Assembly: GCA_026770025.1 (NCBI GenBank)
Contig: JAMXDE010000058.1
Coordinates: forward strand, 124,001-188,000
Direction of reading: 5' to 3'
Source: Craspedostauros australis
Lineage: Eukaryota; Bacillariophyta; Bacillariophyceae; Mastogloiales; Achnanthaceae
DNA: 64,000 bases
Each line of letters opens with the position of its first letter. Within the stretch, counting starts at the first letter, position 1. The notes beneath the pieces are model-generated. The model was not told the origin of the DNA. It saw only the letters and a list, made by a program, of their open reading frames with translations, and searched no databases. This document shows, in pieces, positions 11,149-63,589 of this stretch. The position numbers and the translations under genes are program-made.

Positions 11149-11172
11149 CTCCCCTATAGTCGGGAGTCTTGT

Positions 11173-14328: not shown

Positions 14329-14333
14329 CATGG

Positions 14334-15041
14334 TATCAACATCTAGATCGAAATTAAGGTACCCATCTCCCATGACTGAAACGTGATTCGTTATTTCTGA
14401 TTCGACTCGATTTGAGAGTATAGTCGAGTGAGTCTTGATACACGATTGAGATTCAGTCACTACAGTCATCGAATCTGACGTAGGCGCTGACATCATCGAT
14501 GACATCAGAGGATCGGTCATTGTGATCCTCGGAATCGAGATTATGTTTTAGTCATGGTACGCTGACCTGTCTAGCCATGCCGAGTGCATCATCGAGCACG
14601 TGGCAACAATACTTAGGATCCAGAACAACATCGTCAGAGGTGATGCATGCACCTCGCCGACGTAGACGGATCAATCCATATGTGATCAAACAGAGATCAA
14701 GACCAGACAAGATCAGACAGAGATGAAGAAAGACCAAGGGTGGAGATAACACGAGATATCGTGTAGATCAACATGCCATCTTGGGCAATGTTTTAGGAAA
14801 GACTGTGAGATACAACACGAGGTAATCGAACAGCACGTTAGCAACTGTGCAATAGGCACCATCATTAGAAATAGGAGATCATCATCTCATAATCCACACT
14901 CAATCATCAATTGACACACTAACTTAGCAACAACCAAATACACCAAACATCTCCAACTCCACCTGACGGATTGATCACCCTGGCGGCGTAGTAAGTGCAG
15001 TGTTTGGTGCCCCTTTTCCTGTGTGTAATTGCTGATTATCA
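14334..15041 (+). repeat. 5' LTR of Copia-C
   Basis: 708 bp from TATCAACATCTAGATCG to GCTGATTATCA. The sequence directly after it (GATTAACAGTCGC) is where a primer-binding site would lie. It is not the initiator-Met type TGGTATCAGAGC common in plant Copia. Confidence 0.92.
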
Positions 15042-22104: not shown

Positions 22105-22128
22105 ACAAGACTCCCGACCATAGGGGAG

Positions 22129-22836
22129 TATCAACATCTAGATCGAAATTAAGGTACCCATCTCCCATGACTGAAACGTGATTCGTTATTTCTGATTCGA
22201 CTCGATTTGAGAGTATAGTCGAGTGAGTCTTGATACACGATTGAGATTCAGTCACTACAGTCATCGAATCTGACGTAGGCGCTGACATCATCGATGACAT
22301 CAGAGGATCGGTCATTGTGATCCTCGGAATCGAGATTATGTTTTAGTCATGGTACGCTGACCTGTCTAGCCATGCCGAGTGCATCATCGAGCACGTGGCA
22401 ACAATACTTAGGATCCAGAACAACATCGTCAGAGGTGATGCATGCACCTCGCCGACGTAGACGGATCAATCCATATGTGATCAAACAGAGATCAAGACCA
22501 GACAAGATCAGACAGAGATGAAGAAAGACCAAGGGTGGAGATAACACGAGATATCGTGTAGATCAACATGCCATCTTGGGCAATGTTTTAGGAAAGACTG
22601 TGAGATACAACACGAGGTAATCGAACAGCACGTTAGCAACTGTGCAATAGGCACCATCATTAGAAATAGGAGATCATCATCTCATAATCCACACTCAATC
22701 ATCAATTGACACACTAACTTAGCAACAACCAAATACACCAAACATCTCCAACTCCACCTGACGGATTGATCACCCTGGCGGCGTAGTAAGTGCAGTGTTT
22801 GGTGCCCCTTTTCCTGTGTGTAATTGCTGATTATCA
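22129..22836 (+). repeat. 3' LTR of Copia-C
   Basis: 708 bp, read as identical to 14334-15041. Preceded by the purine tract AGGGGAG and followed by the duplication CATGG. Confidence 0.93.
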
Positions 22837-22841
22837 CATGG

Positions 22842-25140: not shown

Positions 25141-26740
25141 CGTGTAGCTGGGTGTTGCGAGGAGGCGGTTGTTGGTCCGGATTTGTTGCTATTTTATTGG
25201 ACGAGTATTTTCCCGCAGCTCCCAGGAAAGTGGTCACACTTGGAAATGACTGTGTCGTCCGCTGTGATGTCGAAGTGTTCGCCGGGATGTGACGGTGGAC
25301 TTCTGCGCTTGTCGGAATTCGTCGGGATTGGAAGTGGTGCCGGATGCAAAGCGCCAGTGATGGCGAAGGCGTTACCAGTAGAACGTTGTCACGAGTGGAC
25401 TGCGGTTAATCCGTGCGCGCTGTCTCGAATTGTGACTGACTGACGGATGGAAGGCCAGACGGGACCGTGTGAATTTCCCGATTGATGAATGCGAAGATGA
25501 CCGTGCTTAATCCGAGGCGAAGGATGACCGATGGAAAATGTCAACCAGGACCGTGTGAATTTCCCGTTTGGGCGATGTGTTGGCGCGCGACCCGAAGTCG
25601 GATGAATGACTGGGATAGCGAAGGAGTTGTGAGCCGGTGATGACGCGCCAGTGATGGTACGAACCGAAGGAATTCGTAGCCAATCAGAAGGTGGACTGAG
25701 CGCAAATGGCTGTTGTTGATGGAGCGATTGTTTGTTTTGTTGGTCTTGAAACGGTGAAACGTCGCGGATGGATTGCGCGTTGGATGGCCCTGCCCGTTCG
25801 GATTTCGTCTCCCCGAACGCCGTGTTCTTGCGCTTGTTCAGCTGTGCTCCACCAGGATGTGGTGCACCTTTGGTTTCACCCAGTTGGACCTTCGATCCAA
25901 TCCGTGCCTCCTTTGAGTGCCACGAACCAGCTTGCTATACGTCTTTTAGATCTGGCAGCAGCTTGCCCGATGTACCTGATACTAACAGGATTTTGCACGC
26001 TAATGAGCGCGGTGCCCCCCAGGTGCCAGCAACTGCTTTGATTCACCTGGTTCCACCACTCGCGTTTTCGTCCAGCGTATACCTGCCTTCCGGTGTCGTT
26101 AGACTCACTTGGTGATATTGCTATCAGCACAATGCTAGCTTTACGGGTTGCATCCGCGGTATTCCTACCGATCACGTTTCTTCCCCAGTCAAGGGCAGAC
26201 GCTAGTCTGGTTAGCAGTTATCTCTGCGTCCCGTAGGACGTTAACCGATCTCAAGTACGGCTTAGACTTAGTGTTAACGACTGACCTGGTCGCGACAACT
26301 CACGGTGAGATTGCCGATAGGTTTCAGAGGGCCTTTGCGCTCCAAGTTTTTACGTGTGTCTTGCTTCACGGGCTTTCACCTTTGTCGATGCTGACCAGGC
26401 CAAGTGTTTACGTGTGTCTTGCTTCACGGGCGTTTATACCTTTGTCTTTTAGCTGACCAGCTATCGTAAGTAACGCAGTGATGCGGAACTTGGTTGTTGG
26501 AATGAATTACTCCGCCTGCGATATTCGCAACAGCGGGTGAGCCTTTCTGCACTTTAGCAGGGCAAAGCGGGTGTGGCGGCACGTAGCAATCTGCACACAC
26601 GAGCAATTGGGTTCGTCGTCACGAACGCGTTGGGCCTTTCTTGGGCCGGAATCAAAGGAAGGGGACAGCGTGATGTCACCAAGCAGCACAGCGCTTCAGG
26701 ATTCGTTCATGCACTCCGATAGAGACTGCGACTGTTAATC
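25141..26740 (-). other. Copia-B leader
   Basis: 1.6-kb leader between the 5' LTR of Copia-B (26741-27446) and its gag, equivalent to 15042-16644 in Copia-C and with the same repeated blocks. No gene. Confidence 0.6.
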
Positions 26741-27446
26741 TGATAATCAGCAATTCAATACAGGACAGGCACCAAACACTGCACTTACTCCTCCGCCAGG
26801 GTGATCAATCCGTCAGGTGAAGTTGGTGTGTTTGGTGATAGTTGTTGCTAAGTTATGGTTGTATTCAATTGATGATTGGGTTTGGATTATGAGATGATGA
26901 TCTCCTATTTCTAAAGATGGTGCCTATTGCACGGTTGCTAACGCGCTGCTCGATTACCTCGTGGTTTCTCTCGCAGTCTTTTCTAAAACATTGCCCAAGA
27001 TGGCATGTTGATTTACACGATATCCCGTGTTATTCTTGCCCTTGGGTCTTTCTTCATCTCTCCTGGTCTTGCCTAATCTTGATCTCTGTTTGATCACATA
27101 TGGATTGATCCGTCTACGTCGACGGGGTGCATGCATCACCCCTGACGATGTTGTTCTGGATCCTAAGTATTGTTGCCACGTGCTCGATGATGCACTCGGC
27201 ATGGCTAGACAGGTCAGCGTACCATGACTAAAACATAATCTCGATTCCGAGGATCACAATGACCGATCCTCTGACGTCATACGATGATGTCAGTGCCTAC
27301 GTCATGTTCGATGACCGTAGTGACCAAATATCAATCGTGTATCAAGACTCACTCGACTATACTCTCAAATCGAGTCGAATCAAAAAATAGTGAATCACGT
27401 TTCAGTCATGGGAGATGGGTACCTAATTTCGATCTAGATGTTGATA
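26741..27446 (-). repeat. 5' LTR of Copia-B
   Basis: 706 bp, nearly identical to 10443-11148, followed on the plus strand by the duplication CAATG and then Copia-A gag. Confidence 0.92.
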
Positions 27447-27451
27447 CAATG

Positions 27452-28973
27452 CGTCTTCGAGGACTACCCCGAGGGGGATCCTCACGCGGCGTGGAACGTT
27501 CTCGCGGAGAAGTTCCGGCCATCCGACGCAGCAACAAAGATCAAACTCAAGCGTCAATTCAACAACGAAAAGATGAAGAGAGACTCGGACCCCGACATCT
27601 ACATTACGCGACTCGAGCTTTTATGCTCACGTCTCCACGATGTCGGATACACGATCAGTGAAGAAGAGATGATCATGCAGATTCTCAGCACGGTAAGCAA
27701 CGAGTACAAGACTCACATCGTGAACTTCCATCACCAACTCACGTTCAATCCAGATGTAGTCACCATCAACGCAATCAGAGGAGTACTCCGAACTGCACAC
27801 GCCACTCATCAAGGAGGAAAGGCGTACGTCGACGATTTCCAAGACAACACGAAGAGCAACGACACCGGCTTCACTAGCACCGGTAACTTCAAGGGGACCT
27901 GCCACAACTGTGGTATGTATGGTCATAGATCTGCGGATTGCCCCGAACGAAAGAGAGCGAACAACAAGAAAAACAACAACAAGATGAACGGAAAGCGCAA
28001 CAACAAGAACAAAGGAAGCGGCTTCAACGGTAAGTGTAACTACTGTGGCATCTTCGGACACCGCGAGGCGGAGTGCCGAAAGAAGAAGTTCAACGAGAAG
28101 AAGAAGGCCGACGAGCAGGCCAACACAACAATGGAAGGACACGACAAGAGCGGCCACGAGATGGTACTCTCAGCCAGAGACGCGCCGCTCTGCATGGAGG
28201 TGTCCAACAACTACATCGAAGACTCCTTCTTCGATAACTTCGTGTGCGTCGGAAGTGACGACGAAGTACAGGACGATGAGATCATCCCGGAGTGGCTCAA
28301 CGACAAGCCAATCATCCACGAGGTGGATCCAAGACGCGAAGTGAGCTATGAATGCTGCTTCAACGCGAACGACCTGATCGGTCCATACGGTGACGGAGCT
28401 GTGATGGGCACTGAGGCCATTGACATCGAAGTCGAAGCGGCCATGAACGCAGAGGATGCCGACGCCAACGAGAACGGCACGGATCAAGACAACAACGAGA
28501 ACGTCTCCGGAGACGAGACGAACGGTGGCAACGTGCTGCCTCCTCCAGCAGCGGGGAACAACAGAACGGGCATCTTCGACGAAGATGACAGCGATGAAAC
28601 AGAAGATCATCCAGACGACAGCTTCAACCCAAACGAGCGTGTCGTTTACCCGACGGACATCGACTTCCCACCATTCCCGAATCCAAACAACCGGAATGAG
28701 CTTCATCGAATCGATACGATCCCATACGCGACAGCAACAGCGATGAGAATGCAGAAGCATCTTATCTTCGATGCCGTGTCGGCAGTGGGAATGCGAAAGT
28801 ACCCAGAAATGGAAAGAGGGGTACTCAAGGCAATATGGGTGAACATGATGGGATCCATCCTATCCGAGAACTTCAGATCAATCGAAGAGATTCCGCCAAC
28901 GGGGCGATCATCAATCAGCTATTGGAAGCGGCGGATACTGCCTATTGCCGGCGGACGATTGATGTTCATATGA
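27452..28973 (+). mobile_element. Copia-A gag, second part with zinc knuckles
   Basis: Gag segment (WNVLAEKFRPSDAATKIKLK, FNNEKMKRDSD, ITRLELLCSRLHDVGY) resuming after Copia-B. Two CCHC knuckles follow, CHNCGMYGHRSADC and CNYCGIFGHREAEC, in a Lys/Asn-rich context, then a long acidic region. Knuckles of this form bind the element's RNA. Confidence 0.85.
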
Positions 28974-29414
28974 TTGCTAATGGTAATGAATGTTGTTGTT
29001 GATGATGTAAGATCAAAATTATGATTACTTGAGCTATCTCTCTCCCTTCTGCAGTCTGCACCTCTTGTCAATCGTATTCATTCATTTCGAGATCATGTTG
29101 TTTGTGCCTTATCCCAAACCTGCGCCACTCTCTGTTTGACTTCTCGTTTTGGATGGAGGTCAGGGTTTGGATGACGATATTCATATGCAAATATTTTTAC
29201 GATTGAATCTTGACCAATCATTCTTCCAATTGGAGCTTTGACTAATCAGACTTCCAGTTGGAACCTTGACTCATCCGACTTCAGTTTGAGTCTTGACTAA
29301 TCTGATTTCAATTTTGATTCACGACTCGTCAGTCTTGATTGACTGTTAACACGACTCGTAGGTGTGACTGGCAATGTGATTGCTTGGGTGACTTATTGAT
29401 GACTAGTATCTATT
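28974..29414. repeat. spacer inside Copia-A with imperfect tandem repeats
   Basis: About 440 bp between two coding parts of Copia-A. At 29208-29345 roughly five imperfect units of about 28 bp recur, each built on CTTGACTAATC.GA.TTC. It could be a later insertion or a spacer of the element; boundaries could not be fixed. Confidence 0.45.
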
Positions 29415-32400
29415 GTGCACAAGTCTAGGTCTTGTGTCATCAATAGTCTATCTAGCCAGCCGTCTAGGGCAGATACGGAGACAATCCCAAAGATGGACTT
29501 GCATTATACCCTCGGAAGATGCATGCATGTGCTCCTGCGTGAGCGACCACGAGTCACACCCTACGATTCAGTCACCGGAACTCATTTGAACAGCACGGTT
29601 CCATCGGAGTACGCGGATCCGTACGAAGATAGTGAAGACGATGAAGACATGAACGACAACCACAATCCCTACAACGAAGATGGGATTCATGAGGACGAAG
29701 AGGACGACCACATCATGGACGACATGGCCGCAGCCGCCATGGAGCAGCTCCACAAGATGAGCACCAAGTACAAGGACAAGGTCAACAAGGACACCTGGCT
29801 CGCCGACAGCGGAGCTTCGTGTCACATCGTCAATTCGGACGCCGCCCTTTTCAGCGTGCGGCACATCAAGTCATTCGTCCAAGTGGGAGACAGCTCGAAG
29901 CTGGACTCTCCCAAGATGGGATCCATCCGCAAAAAGGTCAAGCAAAGAGACAACACTGGCCACATCATCCGGCTTGATGATGTGAAGTACGCACCCAAGA
30001 TGGCGGTGAACCTTTTCTCTACGAACAAGGCTCTGTACAACGGCTACCAGATGGGTAGCAACGGAATTCTGATGGACATCATCAACGGATCCGGAACAAA
30101 GATCGTGTTTGATCGAGTCTTCCCCACATCCAACGGATTCATCACGGGAGTACAGATGTATCCCATCATGCCAACCAACAACGACATGGCTTCGACAGCC
30201 ATCACCAAGAATCCATCCAAGGAGGTAAGCGTGGCGAACTTCCATAGAATGCTCGGCCACGCGCCACTCGAGACCATGAAGCGGACTGCCGCTCAATACG
30301 GATGGAAAATCATTGGCGAGATGCTGGTGTGTCGCGACTGCGCGGTTGCGAACGCGAGAGTGAAAAACATCTCGAAGACCAGAATCCCGAGAGCTACTCG
30401 CCGCGGCGAGCGCTTCTTCATTGACATTAGTTACACTAAACACATAAGCTTCAGAGATAAATGCTACTGGACCCTGATCGTGGACGACTGCATGGACTAC
30501 TGCTGGAGTTTCTTTCTCAAGAACAAAAGCGACCAACCAGGATACATCAAACGATTCGTGCAGACGATCAAGTCACAGACAGGTGATCAACAGATCATCT
30601 TCCGAGGTGACAACAGCGGAGAGAACAAATCCACGCAGGATACTCTCATCGATGCAGGACTGAATGTGAAATTCGAGTTCACGGCATCCAACACGCCGCA
30701 ACAGAACGGTAGAGTAGAACGCAAGTTCGCGTACCTCTACACCAAGATCCGCTCCATGCTCAATGGAGCACAACTCGATGAAGAGTATAGGCATGGCCTG
30801 TGGGTAGCAGCTGCAAGCACTGCCACCGCCATTGCCGACATCACTGTAGCGAAGAATCAGAAGGAGTCACCACATCGCCAATTCTTCGGCAACAATCCAC
30901 CATATGCAGACACACTCGGCACATTCGGAGAGGTGGGTGTTGTGAAGACTACCTACGGTGGGATCACCGCCAAACTCAAGAATAGAGGAGAAGAGATGGT
31001 GTTCATTGGATGTGCACACCAACACGCATCAGGGGTCTACAACATGTACAGACCATCGACCAAATCACTGGTCTGCTCTCGCGACAACAAGTGGCTCAAC
31101 CAATCATACGGACAGTTTTGTGGCTGGGCACCAGCACCAAACATATCCAACAAAACAGGAACAACAGATGCAGAAGGTTTCACAACCATCGGATGGAAGG
31201 GAGCAACGCCAAGGACGACAACGCGTCAAGCGGCTGAGACAAGGAGAGTATCCTTTGCCGACAGGAACCAATATCATATCCTATCAGACGACGATGAGGA
31301 GGATGATGAAGATGATGGAGTAGTAACCCAACTAATCAACAACGACGAAGATCGGAGCGAATCCGACCCCGAGGATGACGAGGTCCTACCATCTGGCGAC
31401 GAAGCCGACGATGACACAGGCGTCACTCCTCCGAACACACCAGCGAGGTATACACATGACACACCATCAAGACCTCCACCAAGCAAACCAAGCAAGCGTG
31501 ACATAGCTAGAAAGGAGAGAATCCGACGTCACGAAGCACGAGGCAGGAAGGGAGAAGCTAATCCCAAGCCGACTGCAGGGAAGAGTATTCCCAGAGCTCT
31601 GCGTGAGCTCGCAGACTTCAACAAACGAGGTCGAAAGGAGGAAGGTTATGAGAACGAATCATCATCCAACAAAGATAGTGACGAACTCAGCCACGAGATA
31701 ACCGACGAATCCAACAACGAGGAAATCATGGACGAAGAAGAAGAGATCGAGATCACTCACCATAGCACAACAGGACTATACGGAATGAATACAATCATCA
31801 CCGAGTCACCGGCGATCGATATCGGATTGTCGATACAGGACGAGAACAAGGAACCAGGGAAGCACATCGAACCTACAACGTTCGATGGAGCTTTCAATCA
31901 TCCAGATCCCATCCATCGAAAGGGATATCGAGCAGCCATCAAGAAGGAATTCGACTCCATGGATACACGCAAGGTGTACAGCAAGATCAAACGAGACGCC
32001 ATCCCACGCGGCCGCAGATGCTGCAAATGTAAATGGGTCTTCAAGCTGAAACGCGACGGCACACATCGAGCGCGGCTCGTTGCATGTGGCTATTCACAAG
32101 TCGCAGGAGTAGACTTCCAAGAGCATTACTCACCCGTCATCCAAGACGTGACCTACAGAGTCATGATGGTGATCATGCTGATCAAGAAGATGGACTGCGC
32201 ACTCGTCGATGTCGTAACGGCATTCCTACATGGAGACCTCGACGAGGAGATCTACATGAACTGTCCCAATGGGATGGATCATCAACCAGACGAAGCCCTG
32301 ACCCTACACAAGCCAATCTACGGGCTTGTGCAGAGCGCCAGGCAATGGTTCAAGATGTTGGTATCGACCCTCAAGAACATCAACTTCGAACAGAGCGCGG

Positions 32401-33445
32401 CAGACCCGTGCTTGTTCTACAGGAAGACGAACGAGGGAAGTATGATCGTGGCCATTTACGTGGACGACTGCTTCTGCTGCGGAGACTCCAAGGCATTGGA
32501 GACATTCCTGAAGGACATCCAAGGCAGCAAATTCAAGGTAACAATCGAGCGCGGACTTGGAGACTACCTCAGCTGCAACATTGAACTGAACCATGACAAG
32601 ACTAGAGCAACATTGCGTCAACCACATCTCATCCGACATCTCATCGAAGAGTTTGGAACCAAAGTTGAGAAGATGCAACGCTATGCAACACCGGGAACCC
32701 CCGGTCAGATCATCGTACGACCATCCGAAGACAACGGACTACAGAAGGTCGGACCGGAAGATCATGCCGAATACCGCCGAGGCGTCGGCATGCTACTCTT
32801 CCTCATCAAGCACTCGCGACCGGATATCGCAAACCCTGTGAGGAGGTATTGATCGGGCCAACGAAGGCCGCAATGAAGGAGATGTATCGGATCATCAAAT
32901 ACGTGATCGATACAAAGGACTATGGATTGAAGATCTATCCAGCACGTCCAGACAATGACAGCTGGGACATGGAGCTCTTCTGCAATAGCGAATATGCAGG
33001 AGACAAGAACACAAGAATCAGCGTAGGAGGGTTCATCCTATACCTGTGCAAGGTACCAATCCTTTGGCGATCCAAGGCACAGAAGGCCGTCACACTCAGC
33101 TCATCCGAAGCAGAATACATTGCCCTTTCCGAAGCGGCAAAGGAGATCTTCTTCGTCATGCAGCTACTCGAAAGTGTGGGCGTTCCAGTGAAGACACCGA
33201 TCAAGGTCCGTGTGGACAACATCGGAGCGATCTTCATCGCCAAGAACCCATCAACATCCCAACGATCGCGGCACATCGACGTGCGCCATCACTACTTGAG
33301 GAACATGGTAATCAACAAAACCATCGAAATCATTTTCGTCAAATCCAAGCAGAACACAAGCGACGGATTCACCAAGAACATCAAGGCCGACTTGCAACGT
33401 GAACATGAGAAGTCGTACCTTGACACATCGAGAACATTCGAATGA
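29415..33445 (+). mobile_element. Copia-A pol region: protease, integrase, RT, RNase H
   Basis: An acidic lead-in is followed by protease (WLADSGASCHIVNSD), the integrase zinc-binding part (FHRMLGHAPLE...CRDCAVANA) and core (FFIDISYTKH, IFRGDNSGENKS, QQNGRVERKF). An acidic/Ser-rich linker comes next, then RT (WVFKLKRDGTHRARLVACGY, VDVVTAFLHGDL, IYVDDCFCCGD) and RNase H (CNSEYAGDKNTRISVGGF, LSSSEAEYIALSEA, DVRHHYLRNMV). This is a classical Ty1/Copia, distinct from the B/C family. It is broken; about one break is visible here. Confidence 0.88.
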
Positions 33446-50820: not shown

Positions 50821-53800
50821 ATGCGTCTGAAGAGACAGCAGCTCTTTCTCCCGCATTCGACGCTGCCACCTCTTTTCATGGTGATGTTGCTGCTGCTGCT
50901 GCCGTCGCTCCCGACAGTGTCAGCATCGGCCGAAGGTCAGCACAGCAACTCACAAACGTGGAGACAACAGAAAGCGGAGGATGTGATCCATTGGGTGAAA
51001 AGCATGTTCGGTGGGCAGTTCAATGAGAAGCAGACGGTGGGAATGGCCGCGGAGACCGCGTTCCATCGGTCATCCGATATTGGGCTTGGGACTGTTGCTC
51101 ACCAACGCATTTCGAGAGGAGAGATGCTGGCGAGTATCCCGTGGGGTGCCATCATCTACGACGAGAAGAACTTCGGATCCGATGGTTCCTTTTCCTGCGC
51201 CACGGCCAACAAGCTCATTGATGAGCTGGAGCTTGGCGAAGACTCGGTCTACGGTCCCTACATTGAATACCTCCAGAGCCGCAAGCAGCCATCGATGCTC
51301 CCAACGACCTGGACTCCGCAAGGCCAGCACCTGTTGCAGCACGTTCTCAATGGCACGATAGCATTCAACAAAATTCCTCCCAAGGAGCCCACCTCCTGGT
51401 TGACCAACGTCTGGGAGAATGGATGTTTGGGAACGCGCTCGGAGGTGGGGGATTTTGCGGCTCTCACGGTGCTCACGATGGCACACACGGCTTACCTTGC
51501 GCCGATCCTCGACATCTACAACCATGCATCTGGTGCTCGTGCCAACGTCAACGTCCACGTTCGGCAGGGCATTTCGATCGATCTCTTCGCATCGCGGGAA
51601 GTGCAAGCAGGTGAAGAGCTCTGTGTCTCGTATTCTGAAGATGCAACGCGCAGCAGGCCGTCCTGGTATGGCACCCAAGGTACGTTTGTGATCTGCGGCC
51701 AGTCATGATTGCGTATGTATCATGCTGCGTTCTACATTGCGCTACACAGGACTACAGATCTGCAAAACTAGCGTCCATGCTCCAATGACCCCGTGCGCAA
51801 GATGCTGCACGATGGTGTTTGCAAAGATGGATCAATCCGAAAGATGCCTCTCATGCACTACCATGCACCGATCCACACACACAAATACCCCAACGTCAAT
51901 ATCACACCAAATCACATCATATCGCATCGGCATCCCCAGAACTCTTCCGTGACTACGGATTCATTGAGGATTACCCACAAAAATGGGCCTTCATCACTGA
52001 CGACTATCGCATGTATCGGGCGATTTTTCACATCAACAGGCTCCCCACCAGTGCAAAGTTGGACGCGACAGATCTCAGCGATCAGCAGCAGCAGCAGCAG
52101 CGGCAGCTGGAGTATTCCTACGCAGTGACATGGGATCAGACCACGGAAGACGAAGAGCTGCTCCAAGACATGGTGGTCTCACTGCGACGGTATCTCAATC
52201 GGTTGGGACGCATTCGAAGCGGCGAGCTTGCGATGGGACCGCGGGCGTGGGCCGTTGCGCATCATGGCACCGCGGACGATGAAATACCATTCTCGGAATG
52301 GAATGCGGTGGTCAAGTTTGTGGATGCTGCAATAGTTGTGATCGGAAACGCTTTGAGGGATACTGACGACGATGTTGGTGCAGGAATAGATCCGAACCAT
52401 GCCGAGCATTCCACGCTGTTCGGTTGCATCAACGGCGTCGACGATACCTGCCTTGCCAACCAGCTGTACCCAGAGTTCATCGCGAAACCTGAACTATACC
52501 GCATGAGGTCTGCAACGTGCGACATCCAAACACTGCTGCGCTCCGGTGCGTTCGTCGAACTCAGCAACTTCGAGAGCGAATACCAGAAGGTGATCTTCAT
52601 GCAGTCCAAGGAAAATCTTCACATCGACAGCGACGACATGTGCTTGGAACTTGACGGCATCATCCAGATCTGCGACAGCTACCGACCGCATTACCACGAG
52701 TACGCCGTCAACTACGGTGCCCGGTACCTGAAGCAGCTCAAGCGGGCCGCCTTCATCGGTGGTGGAGACTCCATGATCCTCCAGGAGCTGCTGAAGTATC
52801 CCGATCTGGAGCTAGTGCCTCAAAGAGCCGGCTGTAGCCAAACAAATTGGCGATGTTTGGCGATGTTTGGATCACAGAAACTGCTCTGTAGAATGTAGTA
52901 CATTTTCTACGTAAGTCACGAACAAAAAAGGCTAAAAACAGCATCAACCAAAGTTAAACTCTCCGGACTTAGCTCGTGTGCGTGTTCCTGTACTCGTCTT
53001 TCTATTGTAGCATCGAATATAGTTTATATATACAATCCTAAAGTTTGGTGTCTGTTGCTCTCCTGCTCGGTGAGCGCTGATTTGATCTGTCAAGCACCCC
53101 CATCATTCACGGACGTTTTTGGCTTCTGGTCGGCTTGTTTTCCTGTTCTGGTTGTTCCAAACAACTGATCCAACCATCGATGACGTCATGATGACGCAAG
53201 CATTGGAACCAGAATTCTCCAAACTTGCCGCCGAAATTGGGGATCCGAGTGGTCAAATATCGTTCCGACCTCCATGGGAGCACTAAACGCAAGCATACCT
53301 CCATATCATCGCACTCAAACACAATATAGACCATATGGTTGTGACCAACTCGGAGAGATTATTCTGAAATGATATCTATTGTGCAGATTGGGCCAAAGAC
53401 CGCTAAGTCCGGAGACTTCAAAGATGGCGAGTCGAATTTCTCGAAAAAAGAGGCCAGATCCTACCGGACTCCTGTAGAATTCTACTTGTAGCCAAACATC
53501 GCCAAACAAAGCCCGGTCCGTCCGTCGTCCGAAGGCAAAACCACACCAAGGGGGTCAACAAACACAAAAAGATCGACTAGATAGTAGTAACAACAAGATA
53601 ATGCTATTGCTTGCCTGGATAGCCCTGAGTCTTAAGTTTAGGTAGATGCAAAGAGATATTCGATTGAGTGTCTATAACTTTAAGTCTGAGTTTGGGAAAA
53701 ACGGGTCCAAAATCTGTAGCCAATCATCGCCAAACATCGCCAAACATCGCCAAACATCGCCAAACATTTGGGTCCGGCTCTTTGAGGCACTAGTGGTCGC

Positions 53801-56027
53801 CTTGGAGCTGGACCAGATGGTCGTTCGCAATTCCTTCAAATGGTTCCACACCGATCCGCACTTCCACGATGATCGCGTGGAGTGGTGGTACGGGGATGCG
53901 ACCAAGTCGCTGATGCTGTTGCCCAAGGAGTATCTGAACTCCTTCGATTACGTCATGGTGGATGTGTCCGAGACGGGAGAAAGTATCGACGTCATCGACC
54001 ACCTGGACATCTTCAATGCCATGTCCCTGCTGGTCAAGCCGGATGGGATCATGGTGAAGAACGAACCATACTTCGACAAGATGTCCCAGTCGTTTGACTA
54101 CGCTGTCGACGTCCACTTTTACCACAATCCGCTGATCTGTGACCAATCCATGATCCTGGGCAGCAATCACATCGACTTCTTCCACCACGACGACCTGACG
54201 GATCATGGAGTGGAAAATCTATTCCTGCCAGAAATCGAGGACTATCCGCACCCGTACATGCTGTGGCGCGACTACAAGAACACCGATCCCAACCAGGACG
54301 GTTCATGCCACAAGCTCGAGAAGGCCATCCAGCACCAAAAAGAAGATGATGGTGCGCGAAAGGGAAAGAGCGAAGGCGTGGCGATGATCGTCGAGGTGGA
54401 GCATTGCACCATCCCCATGAAGGATGTGGAATCCATCGTCGTCGCAACATTGAAGTCGCTGGGGTACACATCCATCCTGTCCGATGACAACACGGAAGAC
54501 GGGTTCGACGTCATCGTCATGACAGCTCAGGGGTACGTCGTCGCGCGTCGTTGGCCGAAATACAACTATGTGGCGTTGGATATCCACATCTGGAGTCGAT
54601 TCGAAAGGCTGGACGACACACGTGCGGCGTTGGTGAAGGCGTTGGGCGGAGGAAACGATGTGAAGATGGGATCGGTGTCATCGTTCCGCGTTGTGACATC
54701 CGGCATGTACGGAAACAGTTCGTGGGAAGAAGACAGAAAGCTGACCGGGCCTGATCTGGCCAAGCACACGCGCAAGTGCCACGGTGTCATGAACGTCACA
54801 GGAGACATCGATGCTGATGGCGATAACAGCAACCGAAAAGAAGACCCTGAATCACCATCGTCGGCGGCAGCATTGGAAGAAGCTGTTGATGCCGTCGTCG
54901 TCAAGACAGCACTGGATGCCGTGATGAATAACATGGCAACCAAAGACTCGGCTGTGCTCGTGTTCTGCGGGCTTCAAGATCAGCCTTGTGCAGCAGAAGT
55001 CGCCCTGAGACATAATGAGCATGTGGCACAAGTCATTCCCATCCACATGTGCGCCAAGATGAGCCAGATTGGGGAGAAACTGACCGACGATGACGACCTG
55101 CTCGTGATAAACAAGTGCCGTCAGCAAACGGTGCTTCGTCTGCACGAACTTCTTGGAGGAGAGAACAGAATTGTCGTCGATGCCGTGATACTGGACGGAG
55201 ATGCGCCGCATGCGATGGCTCGGCTCTTCTACAGCATGTGGACATTCCGACAGAGCATGGTCCAGATCCCGACCATCCATCTGCTGGTCTCGATGAGACC
55301 CAACTCCAACCGCACCCCTTGGCGACGCAACGTGATCTCAGAGCTGCTCGACAAGCTGGAGGTGGACCCCCTCACGCATTCCGCGCTGTCGATCAAACCC
55401 AAAGGCTCTTCCCGCCAAGGTGATGCGTACGAATTCCACATTCTCAGCGTCGACGTAGACGACGCATTTCAGAGGCTGCGGCATGTCGAAGAGCGCATCC
55501 TGCTCGAGCACGGCAGCGCCGTCGATGTAATCCCAGAAGGTCTGAAAGGCGGGATATTGAGGTACCTCGACATGGACGAATTCGACCCAGTGAGCTTCAG
55601 TCGCGATGATTACGACCTCAGCGCCGCCAAGCAGCAGCTGCGAGGTCAGCTTTCCCTCGGGCGCCAATCCATCTTCCAGCTCGAGTGCGCCGATGAAGGC
55701 AAAGACTCGAGCCCGAGCATCGAAGCGATACTGATGGGGTCCCTTGCAGCCTCCAACCTCTCGCCGAGACGGATCCGAACATACTACGACAGGGGCGAAG
55801 GCACGATAGTCGTGGCCAGGTGCGCGGGAGGACATGCCATCGGCATGTGGGATGGTCGCAATCACATTACAATCAACCTCTTCCAGTTTGATCAGAGGCG
55901 GTCCCAGGCCGACATTTGCCTCAATGCATGCTTGGAGATGGCGGGAGATGGCTGGCAGAAGCAGCTGCGAGACGACATGCCCCGTGGCATTCGCAAGGTC
56001 ATCAACTTCGCTGCAGAACTCGTATAG
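50821..56027 (+). CDS. SET / aminopropyltransferase / SpeD-like fusion, copy 1, carrying a transposon
   Basis: Exon 1 is 50821-51679. The start was chosen by likeness to copy 2 (MRLKRQQLF versus MRLICSSLI); ATGs at 50818 and 50782 are in frame. It opens with a signal peptide (core MVMLLLLLPSLPTVSASA) and then a SET region (GLGTVAHQRISRGE; PILDIYNH with D231, N234, H235; GEELCVSYS). A phase-1 intron (51680-51939) follows. Exon 2 completes the SET C-flank (ELFRDYGFIEDYP), then has the aminopropyltransferase fold (YRPHYHEYAVNY, FIGGGDSMILQELLKYPDLE), where a 976-bp transposon (52815-53790) sits. The fold continues after it (LELDQMVVRN, YGDATKSL, VMVDVSETGES), followed by the SpeD-like region (TAQGYVVARRW, ALDIHIW) and a large C-terminal part. 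All coding sequence on both sides is open. Expected role: SAM-dependent methyl and aminopropyl transfer in the secretory pathway (inference). The gene is active only if the insert is spliced out. Confidence 0.85.
51680..51939 (+). other. intron of fusion gene copy 1
   Basis: 260 bp, donor AAG|GTACGT, acceptor CATCCCCAG|AACTC, phase 1 inside the codon for Glu in ELFRDYGF. Same position and phase as the intron of copy 2. Confidence 0.85.
52815..53790. mobile_element. 976-bp inverted-repeat DNA transposon inside the aminopropyltransferase domain
   Basis: Perfect 17-bp terminal inverted repeats GTGCCTCAAAGAGCCGG, with TA on each side (52813-52814 and 53791-53792); CTAG/TG...CA is an equivalent reading because CTAG is palindromic. 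Just inside both ends are CCAAACATCG repeats (one to two on the left, about five on the right), facing each other. No transposase is encoded, so it is non-autonomous. The inserted length (976 plus 2) is a multiple of three. Leaving it out gives CTGGAGCTAGTGGTCGCC, matching LELVIG in copy 2. The left terminus supplies GT and the right terminus supplies AG (CTTTGAG). Confidence 0.9.
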
Positions 56028-56551
56028 GCTGTGATAAGAAAATAGAGTGGAGTAGTCGGACAATATAGTAGTTCCTACCCAAGTGAGCAGATGTATCGAC
56101 CAAGTCGAAGCATCGAAGTTGTGCTCTGCTACGGGATGGTACCTCTGTTCGCACAGGAACAATTGAACCTGCCTCTCTACCTTCAATCAATAGACTGTTC
56201 CGAGTTCAAAACTAGATAAATTTATACAATTTACCGCAACTTTTACATTGTCACATAACGCCCCTAGTCACATGTTAAATTAATCGCATATGGCCGTTGG
56301 GTTGACAAACACACACGCTTGTCTCATCACATTTCTGTTCCTGAGATTTCCGACAAAAGCAACACACCACAATGACATGCAACACAATACAACACGACGT
56401 CAATGATTGCAAACGAACTCCTGAACAGTCAACAAGAACAGCTCATGCTCAATCATCACAAGTTCGACATTGGGTACTCTCATCCTTTCTTTTCACAAGT
56501 GACGAAAGCAACAAGAGGAAAGGAAGACAACAAAACCAAAGGAACACCACG
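56028..56551. other. intergenic between the two fusion genes
   Basis: About 520 bp. It holds the 3' UTR of copy 1 and the promoter and 5' UTR of copy 2. Both genes run in the same direction. Confidence 0.5.
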
Positions 56552-59500
56552 ATGCGCCTCATTTGCTCGTCGCTCATCGCGTCGCTGTGCGTCTCGTCAG
56601 CGAGCATTGCGAATGCTGCTTCCGCAGCTTCCAGCGACGATCAGTTGCCGTCGACCGATGCGAGGATCAATGCTGTGATCGACTGGGTTCTGGAGCACCC
56701 GAAGGCGTACTTCAACACGAAACAGACCGTGAAGCAGGCGGGTGCCACAGCATTCCACGACGCATCCGAGGTGGGTGTGGGAGTCTTCGCCAACAAGAGA
56801 ATCAGGAAAGGCGAAGTTCTTGCCCGCATTCCGTGGGATCTCGTCATCTCGGACTCTGATGGGGACGATTACCCGGCGAGCGAGTTGAACTGCCGCACCA
56901 CCATGGATCTGATCACAGAAATCGAGAAAGGCGAGAAGTCCAAGTTCGCCCCCTTCGTGGACTACATCAAGAACCTGAGCTTCAACAACCCCAGCTTGTG
57001 GAGCGACTCTGCGAGGCAGATGTTCGACCAGATCCTAACGGGAACGACCCCGTTCCTTCAGCTGCCACCGATGGATATCTCGGGTTGGCTGACAAATGAT
57101 TGGGAGCAGGGTTGCGAGGCGAAGAGAAGCTCTGTGGCGGACCATGCTGCCATCGCAGTTCTCTCTCTTGGATTCGATGAACACTTGATTCCGCTCGTTG
57201 ATCTGTACAATCACGTCAGCGAAGACAGCGCAGAGAATGTCGAATTTGCCGTCAGCGCGGGTACCAACGTCAAGGTCGTGGCATCTGAACAAATTGAAGT
57301 CGGTGAAGAGATCGTATACTCCTACATTACGTGCCCTCACAAGAACAACGACAAAGCCTATGGAGCGTCAGGTTAGTCTTTTGTCCACAATGCTCTGTGG
57401 CAACAACTCACGGACAGTATTCCCCTGTCTCAAATGAATTCCCACAAATCAAGCTCACCCTTTTGTTCCTGATTTCATCAATGCTGTTCTGTTCGAACGA
57501 TCACACACGCCACAACACTTCACACTCGCGTCATGTAGAACTCTTCAGAGACAGCGGGTTCATTGAGGAATACCCGCAGAAGTGGTCGATCATGTACGAC
57601 ACGTTCTACTCCGAACGGGTCATCGCAGACATCATCGATCTCGACAGAAGTGAAGACGACGGCGACGATGACGGCGACGACGACGACGATGAACCAAGGT
57701 TCGGTGTTGCTTGGGAAGAACCGATCCGAGACTTGGAAGCGTATGAAGTGCTTCAGGCATACCTCAGTCAATTCGCTCGAATGCGCCACGATGAACTGAA
57801 GGCAGGACCGGAGGCGTGGGCATTGGCACGCAATACAAGCGATGTCATCCCACAGAATGAATGGGACGCCATCGTGAAGTACGTTGACGCCGCCATCATC
57901 GCACTGTCCAACATACTATGGGAGATGGACGAAACAAAGGAAGTGACGAACCCAAATTCGGTCTTGTACAACATGAAAGAATGCATCAACGGCATCAAGG
58001 GTGCATGCTACCTCAATCAGCTCTACCACACCCTCCAGTCCGAGAAGGAGATCGTGCCCGACAGGAAGGTTACTTGCGACACCAGAAGAATGCTGGACTT
58101 CTCCGGTTACTACCCCCTCGACACCATCGACACAGAGTACCAAAACATCTATTTCAACAAGGAGAACACCGAAGACGGCGATGGTAACGTGTGCATGCAG
58201 CTGGATAACATCGTCCAGATCTGCGACAACTACAGACCGCACTACCACGAGTACGCCGTCAACTACGCGGCACGGTACCTGCCAGAATTCAAGCGCGTCG
58301 CCTTCATCGGCGGCGGTGATTCGATGATCCTCCAGGAGGTGCTCAAGTACCCAAACCTCGAGCTCGTCATCGGACTGGAGCTCGATCAGGTCGTCGTGCG
58401 CAACGCATTCGAATGGTTCCACACAGATCCGCACTTTCACGATGATCGCGTGGAGTGGTGGTTCGGTGATGCCACCAAGTCTCTCCTCCTCCTCCCCAGA
58501 GAGTACATGAACTCATTCGACTTCGTCATGGTGGACGTCTCCGAAACGGGAGCCAGCCTCACCGTCACCGAACATCTCGATATCCTCAACGCCATGGCAC
58601 TGCTCGTCAAGCCAGGTGGTATCATGGTGAAGAACGAACCGCACTTCGAAAAGATCTCCGCCACCTTCGATTACTCCGTGGATGTCCACTTCTACGACAA
58701 CCCCATGATTTGCGACCAGTCCATGATCATGGGCAGCAATCACATCGATTTCTACCATCATGACAAGATGACGGATCATGGCGTCGACAACCTCCTGTTG
58801 CCAGAGATCGGCGACTACCCCCACCAGTACTACCTGTGGCGTGACTACAAGATCAATGATCCAACCACAGACGGATCCTGTGATGCTCTGGCTGAGGCCA
58901 TCGAAGACCAGAAGAAGACCGAGGGTATCCGAAAGGGCAAGAGCGAAGGCATGCTGATGGTGATAGAGGTGGAGCGCTGCGCCATTCCATTGAACAACGT
59001 CGAATCTGCGTTGGTGACAGCCTTGGAGGGTCTTGGTTTCACATCCATCATCTCCGATGATAACAACGAAGACGACGACGACAACGATGCTGGAGATGAT
59101 AATGATGATGACAAGAGCAGCGATGTCGTGATCATGATGGCGGAGGGATACGTGATCGCCCGCTGGTGGAAGGGACGATCGTACGTTGGATTGGACATCC
59201 ATCTGTGGGGACGCTTCGAGAAGATGGACGCCACACGAACGGCGTTGGTGAAGGCTCTCGGAGCCGGTAACGATGTCGCAAAGGGCTCCGTCTCGTCGTA
59301 CCGCGTCATCGTGTCTGGAATGTACGGCAACAACTCGTGGGAGGAAGACACGAAGCTCATTGGTCCAGATCTCACCACTCACACCCGCAAGTGTGATACG
59401 TCCGAGGAGGATGCAACTGCGGCTGTTCCATCTGCCACTACCACCGACACCACTCCAACACCTGCAGCTGCAGCCACCATCGAAAGCCTGATGGCTGACG

Positions 59501-60666
59501 ATGCCTTCCTTGCGACATCGCTGGGTGCCATCACTGATGCGATGGATGTTGCGGATGGCTCCATGGTGGTTGTGTTCTGTGGCAGCCAATCCAGCAGGTG
59601 TCTTTCTGCCTCCGCATTGGAGAAGAGCAACAGCGACAGCAGCGGTGGATTGTTGAAGATCGTCCCAGTCCATGTCTGTCCTGAGATGGAATCCCTCATC
59701 TTCGGAGACGGCGATATCAACAACAGCAACCTTGCTGACTTGCATGAATGCCGCCATTCGATCGAGGATGAGATCAAGTCCGCCATCCGCGAGCACAACC
59801 AACCCATCGGAGCTGTCATCCTGGATGCGGAGGCACCGTACGCCATGGCGCGCATCTTCACGAGCTTCTGGACATTCCGACGCAACATCTTCCAGAACAC
59901 GGTCGTTCCTCTCTACGTGTCCATCCTTCCAGACTCCACGAAGGATGAATGGCGTCGCAACACTCTCAAGCAGATCCGCTTGAAGCTCGACATCGACCCT
60001 CTGACCAGAACCGAAATCATCGTCCAACCCAAGCGCGCCAAGATGGATGCTCCTGCATTCGAGCTGTCCATCCTCACTGTGGACATGAATGATACCTTCC
60101 CTCGCATCCGACGTGTGGAGGACACCATCGCCACCAAGTACGGTGACACCTTCATGGTCAAGCCAAGCGTCATGCAAGGTGGAACGCTGAGATACCTCGA
60201 CAACGACGAGTTCAACGCGACACTGTTTTCGCAACGAGACTACGATCTGAGTGCTGAGAAACAGCAGCTGAAGGACCAGCTCGCCTTCGGTCGTCAGTCT
60301 GTGCTGCAGCTTGGACGCAGCAGCAAGGACCACGATAACAGCCCCAACATCGCCTCCATCATGACGAGCGTGATGGAGGACGAGGATGTCGACGTCACCG
60401 TGGAATCCATGCGGGTTTACGAGGATGTCGGTGACGGTGTTGTGGTGGTGGCGCGTTGCGTGGAAGGAACCGTGGTGAGCGTTTGGGATGGACGTGATCA
60501 CATCGTGGTGAATCTGTTCCAGTTCGATCAGGAGCGTTCGGAGGCCGACCTGTTCTTGACGGAGTACTTGGAGGTGGCCGGCAAAGGCTGGTCGAAGGAG
60601 CTGAGGGATGACATGCCCCGAGGCACGAACAAGGTGATGAACTTCAGCACGAATGATTCGAAGTAG
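56552..60666 (+). CDS. SET / aminopropyltransferase / SpeD-like fusion, copy 2, intact
   Basis: Exons 56552-57371 and 57539-60666 give 1315 residues. Start at ATG 56552 after ACCACG. Signal peptide residues 1-23 (MRLICSSLIASLCVSSASIANA). SET region about 35-300: VGVGVFANKRIRKGE (74-88), LIPLVDLYNH (D217, N220, H221), GEEIVYSY (251-258), ELFRDSGFIEEYP. Then a linker and the aminopropyltransferase (about 480-700): YRPHYHEYAVNY, GGGDS (D534), ELD (E554, D556), GDA (D584), VDVSETG (D606, E609 where spermidine synthases have DxxD). Then a SpeD-like region (about 730-860): AEGYVIARWW, GLDIHLW, ALVKALGAG. It has Gly, Arg and Trp where decarboxylases have the pyruvoyl Ser, His and Cys. The final 400 residues include a second region of similar pattern (GDGVVVVARC, HIVVNLFQFD). 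Inferred role: polyamine-related transfer in the secretory pathway; no homologue was checked. Confidence 0.88.
57372..57538 (+). other. intron of fusion gene copy 2
   Basis: 167 bp, donor CAG|GTTAGT, acceptor CATGTAG|AACTC, phase 1, same place as in copy 1. It yields ASELFRDSGF across the junction. Confidence 0.88.
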
Positions 60667-61084: not shown

Positions 61085-62965
61085 TCAGGTCTTGCCGCCT
61101 CCCTCGACTTGCAATCGCAGCTCCGGTGGCAGCTCCTGTCCCTCCAACCAACTGCCAAAGTCCTCGTGCCTCTTCTCTTCCTCAACCCTGGATTCTTCGT
61201 TCTCGTGAGAGTTGGTGTAATCCGTGACGCCGTCCCAGTACTTGCAGGACATCTTGAACTTGCCCGAAAGGTTCGGCGCGTTGTTCCACGACTGGACGGC
61301 ACTGCTGGCAGCGGCGGGTTCCACGAACTTGACGATGACGACGTTGTTGTTCTTGGATAGCACCGTGATCTTCTCGACCTGCCCACAATCCTTTTCGCAT
61401 TTGTCGTGGATGGTGGATTCCCATTTATCTTCGTCCAGGCCTTCGACCATCCGCTCCACGATAACGATGCGTAATCCCTTGCGACCGCCCGCAAGTCGCT
61501 CTCCAAAGCCATCATCCTGCGCCTGCAGCAACGCCAACCGAGCGACCTTGCGCTGAGCTTCCGACACGGGACGTTTCCGCCTCTTCCTATCTCCGTTGTT
61601 TCCTCCGTTCGCATTTGCGTCGGCATCGTCCTTCTTGGCTTCGAAGTGCGCTCGCTGGACCTGGAGCGTGTGGTCGGCATCCCAAGGGCTGGAATCCAGG
61701 ACCTGCAATGCCAGGTCGACGGACTCGGGGCGGGCGTAACAGATGCTGGCATCACCCTTGAGCTGCCCTGTGGCTCTGTCCTTGTAGAGCTTGATCTTGG
61801 GCTGCATCGTCTCGGGGTTGAGATCGATGAGGCCCACCCTTCCAAAGAACTTGGCAATGTCGTTGATGGTGACAGCGGAAGCATCGTCTTTTGGCAATCC
61901 CGCAACGTAGATCCAATTCTTGGCATTCTTCTTCGCGAACTGTGCCTTCTTGTGCTTCTTCTTTTTCTTCGTTCCGTCGGCGCCGCCACCAGAGACACCA
62001 TTGTTGTTGCTGCTGCTGTTATTGTTGCTGTTGCTGCTGCTGTGGTTCGAGCCATTCTTCTTACCAGGCTTCTTGCTGTTCTTCTCATCCTGTTCATTCG
62101 CCTTGTGCATTGCAGCAACGGCCTCGTGCACCCAGTTCCCATTGGTGGGATCTTGGACATACCTCGTTCCACCGTCGCTCTGGTACGAAGCTATATTGTC
62201 ATCGTCGGCACCAGCTCCAGACGCTGTCCCTTTGCCTCGGCCATCACCGTCGTCACCGTCGTTGGCCATGGAAAGGAACTGCTCCAGCTCGTTCTGCACA
62301 TCTTCCTCTTCTTTGCTCTGTTCTTGCGTGCCGCTGCTCTTACCGCCATCGTCTCCCTCACTCTGGCCATCCCCTGCCGATGCGGAAGCAGCTTCGCTCT
62401 GTTCTTCCGCCTGCTTCGCCCGTTCCAAAGTCTCCTGCATGCTGGGTTGCCGCAGCGCCTGAAACACAAGCTGCAAGTTGGGAAGCTTCGACAAGGCCAT
62501 CCATTCCGGCGTGATGCCTTGCGCGAAGACGAGAAAGGCATCCGGATCCTCGTCTCCCTTGGCCACTTGTGACGACAGCGCACGGCAGGAAACCGCGTCT
62601 GTGGACGTCGATGCGCCATCCGCATTGGGTTGCCTGCGATCCTGGTAGTACCATTTGGTGGCTGCCTCTTTCAGCACATCGATAGAGCTGACCGGCTTCC
62701 ATTGCTGACTGCCTTGCTGACTGCCTTGCTCTTCTGAGGCAGCACCAGCGGCCGTGTCCACCACCATGGTCTGCGGCGTGAGGATGGTGGGAAGGCCCTC
62801 CCTGGCTGGAACCAACAGCTTGCAGATCTGACGGATGGAAAGCGTGGTCGTTGACACAGTCCCGCTCTTCGGATTCTGGTAGTAATACCGCGGCTCATCC
62901 AGCGCCATGTCGTTTGCGCCTGCGTCCGTCATCGCGTCTGCTCTTCGGAGGACTCGGACCCGCAA
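61085..62965 (-). CDS. TAT-SF1/CUS2-like U2 snRNP splicing factor
   Basis: 626 residues from ATG 62965; an in-frame MTDAG at 62932 is a likely alternative start. The N-terminus has a GYF/tudor-like region (PRYYYQNPKSG, ATKWYYQD). An acidic/Ser stretch and an Asn/Ser run with a basic KKKKKHKKAQFAKK follow. RRM1 lies at about 347-425 (NWIYVAGLPKD, KFFGRVGLIDLNP, GDASICYARPESVDLA). RRM2, of the UHM type, lies at about 495-580 (LRIVIVERMV, DCGQVEKITVL, VVIVKFVEPAAAS, NLSGKFKMSCKYWDGVTDY). The end FGSWLEGQELPPE fits the family. TAT-SF1/CUS2 proteins bind SF3B1 ULMs and remodel the U2 snRNP during pre-mRNA splicing in the nucleus. The call rests on domain order and motifs and is firm. Poly-Gln/Asn stretches are expansions. 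Confidence 0.88.
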   Translation of the reverse strand: MRVRVLRRADAMTDAGANDMALDEPRYYYQNPKSGTVSTTTLSIRQICKLLVPAREGLPTILTPQTMVVDTAAGAASEEQGSQQGSQQWKPVSSIDVLKEAATKWYYQDRRQPNADGASTSTDAVSCRALSSQVAKGDEDPDAFLVFAQGITPEWMALSKLPNLQLVFQALRQPSMQETLERAKQAEEQSEAASASAGDGQSEGDDGGKSSGTQEQSKEEEDVQNELEQFLSMANDGDDGDGRGKGTASGAGADDDNIASYQSDGGTRYVQDPTNGNWVHEAVAAMHKANEQDEKNSKKPGKKNGSNHSSSNSNNNSSSNNNGVSGGGADGTKKKKKHKKAQFAKKNAKNWIYVAGLPKDDASAVTINDIAKFFGRVGLIDLNPETMQPKIKLYKDRATGQLKGDASICYARPESVDLALQVLDSSPWDADHTLQVQRAHFEAKKDDADANANGGNNGDRKRRKRPVSEAQRKVARLALLQAQDDGFGERLAGGRKGLRIVIVERMVEGLDEDKWESTIHDKCEKDCGQVEKITVLSKNNNVVIVKFVEPAAASSAVQSWNNAPNLSGKFKMSCKYWDGVTDYTNSHENEESRVEEEKRHEDFGSWLEGQELPPELRLQVEGGGKT

Positions 62966-63589
62966 TAGGATGCTTCACTTCCTTCTGATCAAGAGGGTTA
63001 TATGATATAATGCTAAGCTTCGCCTTTGACTTTGTCTCTGTCGATCCATTGATCTATTGATCTGCTGGTCTACTGCCGTGGTTGTGCACACCCATCGTCA
63101 ATCATCCACACCTCCTCTCCGTCTTCGCATCTCTCTCACAACAACCAAACAACTCTATGCGGGACTCGAATAGGACTGGATAGGATACCATTTGTCTGTG
63201 CTGCTGTGCGTCAGCGTGGATGTTGGAACCAACCATCCAAAACCATCGCGTGGAAACAGCCAACTCGCGGCCACGATCGAACCGCACCATCCAAAATCAT
63301 CGTCGCCTCAATCTGCCCACCGCTCTACCTGCGCTCTGCTCTGCGAGCACCACTGTACTTGCGTTGGCGAAATTCATTACGGCTATTGTAACGGTATGAA
63401 CTCCCTGCTAGTCTTACATTGTACATTCGGTGCTACTACCCCATCAGCGGATGATGGCGCGGATGGTATGTCCAGAGCAGGTTGTTGTTGGGTGGTTGTT
63501 TGATTGTTGGTTCTTACACCACACGCCCCACGCCCCACGCCCCACACCACACACCACACACCCGCGAAAAGGCTGTGCTCGCCCTGCTC
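62966..63589. other. intergenic upstream of the TAT-SF1-like gene
   Basis: About 620 bp holding the promoter of the minus-strand TAT-SF1-like gene and the 3' flank of the edge gene. A CCCCACGC/CACCACAC low-complexity stretch lies at about 63520-63560. No gene seen. Confidence 0.45.

What the first reader, a model, noticed from the sequence alone, without database searches (positions are those of the whole stretch)
50821..60666. Tandem pair of SET, aminopropyltransferase and SpeD-like fusion genes
Seen: two adjacent, same-strand genes with one order: signal peptide, SET-type region with its NH and GEE..SY motifs, spermidine-synthase fold with GGGD and VD.S motifs, SpeD-like region, long C-terminal part. 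Known: SET enzymes methylate lysine with SAM; aminopropyltransferases use decarboxylated SAM; diatom silica proteins carry methylated lysines and long-chain polyamines; AdoMetDC/aminopropyltransferase gene fusions have, as I recall, been reported in diatoms. Inferred: a single chain that combines methyl transfer and aminopropyl transfer, possibly on lysines or polyamines for silica formation. The SET part with a secretory signal in the same polypeptide is the part I would call new.
Basis: partly seen in the sequence, partly recalled or inferred. Interest (0 to 1): 0.9.

Follow-up and report, generated by a model that had tools for sequence, protein, structure and literature searches.

The report
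SET-aminopropyltransferase fusion genes with dead SpeD
Two neighbouring genes, probably from a diatom, encode a protein that joins a methyl-transferring part to a polyamine-building part; fusions of this kind have been described in diatoms before, but here a third part, which looks like the enzyme that makes the polyamine donor, has lost the residue it needs to work.

Summary
Copy 2 (two exons) gives exactly 1315 residues; copy 1 has the same layout, 47% identical. Pfam supports SET (1.4e-8, 2.6e-8) and Spermine_synth (2.2e-13); AdoMet_dc is borderline, in copy 1 only. Two corrections. First, the architecture is not new: passages of two papers describe diatom AdoMetDC-aminopropyltransferase fusions, some with a histone N-methyltransferase domain, crediting among others Michael 2011, which is not held. 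Second, the SpeD-like domain is homologous to SpeD (0 of 200 shuffles reach its score), but both copies have Gly for the pyruvoyl-forming Ser, and Arg and Trp for His68 and Cys83. It should not decarboxylate SAM; a structural role, as in animal spermine synthase, is likelier, and donor must come from elsewhere. The pair differs mostly by synonymous changes. Activity, location, role in silica and diatom origin are inferred. No fusion relative was found in the prokaryote, viral, plasmid or phage collections; no eukaryote collection was available.

The parts
50821..51679 (+). copy 1, exon 1: hydrophobic N-terminus (signal-peptide-like) and most of the SET domain
   Evidence: Pfam SET 2.6e-8; peak hydropathy 2.69 for the 13-residue window at residue 18
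51940..52817 (+). copy 1, second coding stretch: end of SET region, linking region, first part of the aminopropyltransferase up to and past GGGDS
   Evidence: Spermine_synth 18.5 bits, E 0.0016, under cut-off
52818..53789 (.). insert of about 972 bp in copy 1: inverted repeats at its ends, flanked by a 4- to 6-bp direct repeat (CTAG or CTAGTG; borders uncertain by two bases), subterminal 10-bp tandem repeat, no reading frame over 89 codons; MITE-like
53796..56027 (+). copy 1, remainder: rest of the aminopropyltransferase, SpeD-like domain (about 54363-54770), C-terminal region
   Evidence: AdoMet_dc 2.1e-5 and Spermine_synth 22.5 bits
56552..57371 (+). copy 2, exon 1: signal-peptide-like N-terminus and most of the SET domain
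57539..60666 (+). copy 2, exon 2: end of SET region, linking region, aminopropyltransferase (about 58100-58850), SpeD-like domain (58936-59385), C-terminal region of about 390 residues without a Pfam match over cut-off
   Evidence: Spermine_synth 1.6e-13

Best explanation
A tandem pair of old paralogues of the diatom SET-aminopropyltransferase-SpeD fusion kind. The aminopropyltransferase part transfers aminopropyl groups from decarboxylated SAM to an amine, the SET part N-methylates an amine (lysine or polyamine) with SAM, and the SpeD-like part is a catalytically dead relic kept for dimerisation or scaffolding, as in animal spermine synthase. The chain probably enters the secretory pathway and serves long-chain polyamine or silaffin modification. 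Shown: architecture, homology, excess of synonymous change, loss of the pyruvoyl serine. Inferred: enzymatic activities, substrate, location, link to silica, diatom origin.
For: Pfam matches for SET and aminopropyltransferase and PDB matches to spermidine synthases (1.1e-9). Donor-site motifs of aminopropyltransferases kept in both copies: YQ, YHE, GGGD, LELD, GDA (roles recalled). SET G.G, NH and GEE..SY motifs kept in both (roles recalled). The SpeD-like domain matches a profile of seven SpeD proteins (hhalign score 31.1, 0 of 200 shuffles), but Ser63, His68 and Cys83 of T. maritima AdoMetDC are Gly, Arg and Trp in 2 of 2 copies, while the seven controls keep Ser and Cys in 7 of 7 and His in 6 of 7. 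Pairwise dN/dS is about 0.12 for the aminopropyltransferase, 0.16 for the SpeD-like part and 0.23 for SET (ratios worked out), so the dead part is held nearly as tightly as the transferase. Published precedents in passages.
Against: The second Asp of the DxxD motif is Glu in both copies (DVSET for DSSDP), so transferase activity is not certain. The SpeD match is weak: hhalign probability 52%, AdoMet_dc over cut-off in one of two copies and only in the longer piece. SET is found by Pfam but not by single-sequence PDB search. dS is near saturation, so ratios are rough, and a pairwise ratio cannot say which copy was constrained. No expression or localisation data; source organism unidentified; structure models failed (mean pLDDT 33 and 45).
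Confidence: 0.55

Rival explanations
1. All three parts are active and the chain makes its own dcSAM from SAM and uses it on the spot, as the reader's layout and the title of Michael 2011 would suggest.
For: SpeD homology; AdoMetDC-aminopropyltransferase fusions with both activities exist in bacteria (passage of PMC12803844).
Against: The serine that becomes the pyruvoyl group is Gly in both copies, with His68 and Cys83 also replaced.
Confidence: 0.04
2. The aminopropyltransferase part has become a SAM- or dcSAM-binding regulatory domain, and the SET part is the only catalyst, acting on silaffin or other secretory lysines.
For: Asp to Glu in the DxxD motif and GGGDG to GGGDS; Pfam matches only positions 3-133 of 186 of Spermine_synth.
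Against: Of the parts measured this one is the most conserved (73% identity, dN/dS about 0.12), and the donor-site motifs are kept.
Confidence: 0.25
3. Both enzymes are active, but in a compartment other than the silica deposition vesicle (ER, plastid or nucleus), with no role in silica.
For: Location rests on hydropathy of the N-terminus only.
Against: Both copies, 33% identical there, keep a hydrophobic N-terminus; elsewhere copy 2 has no window over 2.0 and copy 1 has one region at 409-413.
Confidence: 0.2
4. Copy 1 is a pseudogene because of the insert; only copy 2 works.
For: Read straight on, copy 1 stops at the 27th codon of the insert. The inverted repeats are perfect, which suggests a recent insertion.
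Against: The rest of copy 1 is open in one frame; a frame-keeping GT-AG pair exists near the ends of the insert, so it could be spliced out.
Confidence: 0.5

Closest known systems
Diatom AdoMetDC-aminopropyltransferase fusions, some with a histone N-methyltransferase domain (Michael 2011, FEBS Lett; not held, known here from passages in PMC12029483, PMC3820600, PMC6356823, PMC12803844)
   Same: Aminopropyltransferase, AdoMetDC-type domain and a histone-methyltransferase (SET) domain in one chain
   Different: Here the AdoMetDC-type part is dead by sequence. Whether the 2011 paper noted this, and its domain order, could not be read
Animal spermine synthase: AdoMetDC-derived N-terminal domain plus aminopropyltransferase
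   Same: AdoMetDC-derived domain without decarboxylase activity, kept for dimer formation (passage of PMC12803844)
   Different: The dead domain lies before the transferase there and after it here; no SET part
Diatom-specific SET domain methyltransferases (Nemoto 2020; not held, seen as cited in PMC11554505 and PMC11151724)
   Same: SET domain proteins proposed to act on substrate proteins and LCPAs in silica formation
   Different: Whether those proteins include this fusion could not be checked
Class 1b AdoMetDC (SpeD), e.g. T. maritima (1tlu, 1vr7)
   Same: Weak sequence similarity over the central strands
   Different: No pyruvoyl-forming Ser, no His68, no Cys83

Membership tests
Diatom SET-aminopropyltransferase-AdoMetDC fusions | SET-type methyltransferase domain in the chain | tested here: met
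   Pfam SET 1.4e-8 and 2.6e-8; 2 of 2 copies
Diatom SET-aminopropyltransferase-AdoMetDC fusions | Aminopropyltransferase domain | tested here: met
   Spermine_synth 2.2e-13 in copy 2; PDB spermidine synthases 1.1e-9
Diatom SET-aminopropyltransferase-AdoMetDC fusions | AdoMetDC-derived domain | tested here: met
   AdoMet_dc 25.2 bits (cut-off 25) in copy 1, 22.6 when the domain is searched alone, none in copy 2; profile comparison 0 of 200 shuffles
Diatom SET-aminopropyltransferase-AdoMetDC fusions | Diatom genome | not testable with these tools
   No genome held for the window and no eukaryote collection; diatom origin is inferred from the architecture
AdoMetDC (SpeD) | Serine that forms the pyruvoyl group | tested here: not met
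   Gly in 2 of 2 copies; Ser in 7 of 7 plasmid SpeD controls; the controls were found with a seed that holds this site
AdoMetDC (SpeD) | His68 and Cys83 (T. maritima numbering, roles recalled) | tested here: not met
   Arg and Trp in 2 of 2 copies; His in 6 of 7 and Cys in 7 of 7 controls
Aminopropyltransferase | dcSAM-site motifs (YQ, GGGD, ExD, GDA; roles recalled) | tested here: met
   Present in both copies
Aminopropyltransferase | Catalytic DxxD motif | tested here: inconclusive
   First Asp kept, second is Glu in both copies
SET lysine methyltransferase | G.G, NH and GEE..Y motifs (roles recalled) | tested here: met
   All three in both copies
Secretory protein | Cleavable signal peptide | tested here: inconclusive
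   Hydropathy only; no signal-peptide predictor available

The most novel reading that the evidence does not exclude
A secreted enzyme that builds and N-methylates long-chain polyamines, or lysine-bound polyamine chains on silaffins, in one chain inside the silica-forming compartment, depending on imported SAM and imported dcSAM because its own decarboxylase domain is dead and serves only as scaffold; the C-terminal region may hold a second, more decayed SpeD-like fold.
Probability: 0.25. Interest if true: 0.65.

Novelty: new member of a known kind. Interest (0 to 1): 0.38.

Why it matters
In nothing read here were the enzymes that make and methylate diatom long-chain polyamines shown biochemically; PMC12803844 (2025) lists the diatom fusions as needing further study. 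If the AdoMetDC-type part is dead in these genes, the view that such fusions make their own donor fails for this branch, and a source or transporter of dcSAM for the secretory route has to be looked for. That is directly testable.

Tried and rejected
Relatives: scans with exon 2 and with alignment A1 confirmed none in viral contigs and none in genome contigs (84,980 prokaryote species); the SET exon confirmed none in viral contigs. These scans start from a few short peptide patterns, so absence is weak evidence. Plasmid records gave 6 matches at 27-32% identity over 11-16% of the query, 5 of them annotated speE and 1 without annotation, no fusion; phages none.

Structure: exon 2 modelled at mean pLDDT 33, the C-terminal 386 residues at 45. 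Foldseek gave no match at E 0.001 or better; among the 50 rows shown of 1037, T. maritima AdoMetDC stands at ranks 25 and 36 with E 0.28 and 0.37, from a model too poor to trust. The last 200 or so residues align end to end with SpeD by hhalign, but 28 of 200 shuffles score as well, and an internal comparison of the SpeD-like part with the C-terminus was negative; a second SpeD-like domain is a hint, not a finding. The region before it showed no link to the aminopropyltransferase (42 of 200 shuffles). For the C-terminal region the best PDB match had E 0.052, the best NCBIfam match 0.067 in one of two copies, the best Pfam match 15.7 bits under a cut-off of 27: none taken as real.

Matches of the SET exon to heme-uptake proteins (E 0.0077 and 0.066) were set aside as chance, being far below the model's cut-off.

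Full report
What is there. The window holds two same-strand genes at 50821-56027 and 56552-60666. Copy 2 has one GT-AG intron of 167 bases and encodes 1315 residues; copy 1 has a GT-AG intron of 260 bases at the same place. The proteins align over 1296 columns with 606 identities. Identity by part: N-terminus 33%, SET 42%, region between SET and transferase 35%, aminopropyltransferase 73%, SpeD-like 65%, linker after it 29%, C-terminal regions 35% and 48%. dS is close to saturation (1.9 overall) and dN is 0.45, so the duplication looks old and protein change was held back; a pairwise ratio cannot assign this to one copy or to recent times.

Domains. Pfam gives SET at 1.4e-8 and 2.6e-8 and Spermine_synth at 2.2e-13; NCBIfam gives polyamine aminopropyltransferase PRK00811 at 6.1e-21, but at 74.9 bits against an equivalog cut-off of 260; the PDB gives a Kluyveromyces protein at 6.6e-11 and named spermidine synthases from 1.1e-9. 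AdoMet_dc reaches 25.2 bits against a cut-off of 25 in a long piece of copy 1, 22.6 in the domain alone, and is not found in copy 2. A profile of both SpeD-like parts against seven SpeD proteins from named plasmids scores 31.1; 0 of 200 column shuffles reach it (best 24.6), although the stated hhalign probability is only 52%. The homology is taken as real though weak. For SET, PDB searches were poor: no SET structure from the single exon, NSD2 at E 0.14 and SETD6 at 0.82 from a two-row profile; the case for SET rests on Pfam in both copies and on the motifs.

The SpeD-like part looks dead. HMMER aligns the copy 1 domain without gaps to T. maritima AdoMetDC over 32 residues (E 0.29 on its own; the homology rests on the profile test above). 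Ser63, which becomes the pyruvoyl group, is Gly; His68 is Arg. In the joint alignment Cys83 is Trp, and copy 2 has the same three changes; the seven controls keep Ser 7 of 7, Cys 7 of 7 and His 6 of 7. The controls are 7 of 36 plasmid records found with a seed that includes the site, so they show the normal state and are not an unbiased sample. That AdoMetDC needs self-processing at a serine is stated in PMC9992855 (passages); the numbering and the roles of His68 and Cys83 are recalled, save that Ser63 and His68 follow from the residue numbers. Animal spermine synthase is a precedent: an AdoMetDC-derived domain that lost activity but is needed for its role in dimer formation (PMC12803844, passages).

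Transferase and SET sites. The aminopropyltransferase keeps YQ, YHE, GGGD, LELD and GDA in both copies, while DSSDP reads DVSET; so donor binding is likely and the amine site may be altered. SET keeps G.G, NH and GEE..SY in both. Activity of either is inferred. Both N-termini are hydrophobic; no other 13-residue window over 2.0 in hydropathy occurs in copy 2, and one region (409-413) in copy 1.

Insert in copy 1. Bases 52818-53789 are an insert of about 972 bp, 45% G+C, longest open frame 89 codons. Its ends form a perfect 20-nt inverted repeat that includes bases of the flanking direct repeat; the duplicated target can be drawn as CTAG or CTAGTG, which shifts the border by two bases. A 10-bp tandem repeat inside one end recurs inverted at the other. 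No second copy lies in the window. The flanking coding sequence is open in one frame across the empty site; read straight on, it stops at the 27th codon of the insert. A frame-keeping GT-AG pair exists near its ends, so pseudogene and transposon-derived intron cannot be told apart without RNA.

What is known. A passage of PMC12029483 describes diatom fusions of AdoMetDC and aminopropyltransferase, in some cases fused to a histone N-methyltransferase domain, citing two papers of which one is Michael 2011; a passage of PMC3820600 says the same, citing its reference 59, and that paper holds the Michael 2011 title. PMC6356823 reports multiple SAMDC-APT fusion genes in single diatom genomes; PMC12803844 reports 32 APT fusion proteins in Nitzschia inconspicua; PMC4742977 did not find such genes in the transcriptome of a silicifying haptophyte; PMC12533330 reports one upregulated with aluminium. 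Nemoto 2020, seen only as cited, named diatom-specific SET methyltransferases. All these papers were seen in passages only; Michael 2011 and Nemoto 2020 are not held. None of the papers listed by ten literature searches (lists cut to 20 of 151 and 15 of 1,028) reports, in title or start of abstract, an inactive AdoMetDC domain in diatom fusions. The library lacks most subscription journals, so this is no proof of novelty.

Verdict. What remains of interest is the dead decarboxylase, conserved almost as tightly as the transferase, which changes the expected mechanism: donor from elsewhere, SpeD-like part as scaffold. The organism, the localisation and the chemistry are not shown.

Noticed in passing
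window 52818-53789: MITE-like insert of about 972 bp inside the aminopropyltransferase coding sequence of copy 1, with inverted repeats at its ends and a short target duplication.
   Followed up: partly
window 10439-27447: Nested Copia-type retrotransposons: outer repeats 10439-11149 and 26737-27447 (99.7% identical), inner repeats 14333-15044 and 22128-22839 (99.9%), with RVT_2 in the ORFs at 11176-14547 and 16555-22101. By coordinates the inner one seems to split the outer one's minus-strand ORF.
   Followed up: partly
window 27438-32849: Further Copia-type gag (27438-28970) and pol (29403-32849) ORFs.
   Followed up: no
copy 2 residues about 1100-1315 (window about 60040-60663): C-terminal end aligns end to end with SpeD proteins, but not beyond shuffles (28 of 200); weak Foldseek hits to AdoMetDC from a poor model. 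A possible second decayed SpeD-like fold.
   Followed up: partly
window 6311-6370: Rfam tRNA match, 35 bits against a gathering score of 29, that ARAGORN with the bacterial code did not report.
   Followed up: no
window 61088-62974, minus strand: Convergent neighbouring ORF with an RRM_1 match (7.3e-7) and a sub-cut-off match to SR-25, a splicing-associated family.
   Followed up: no
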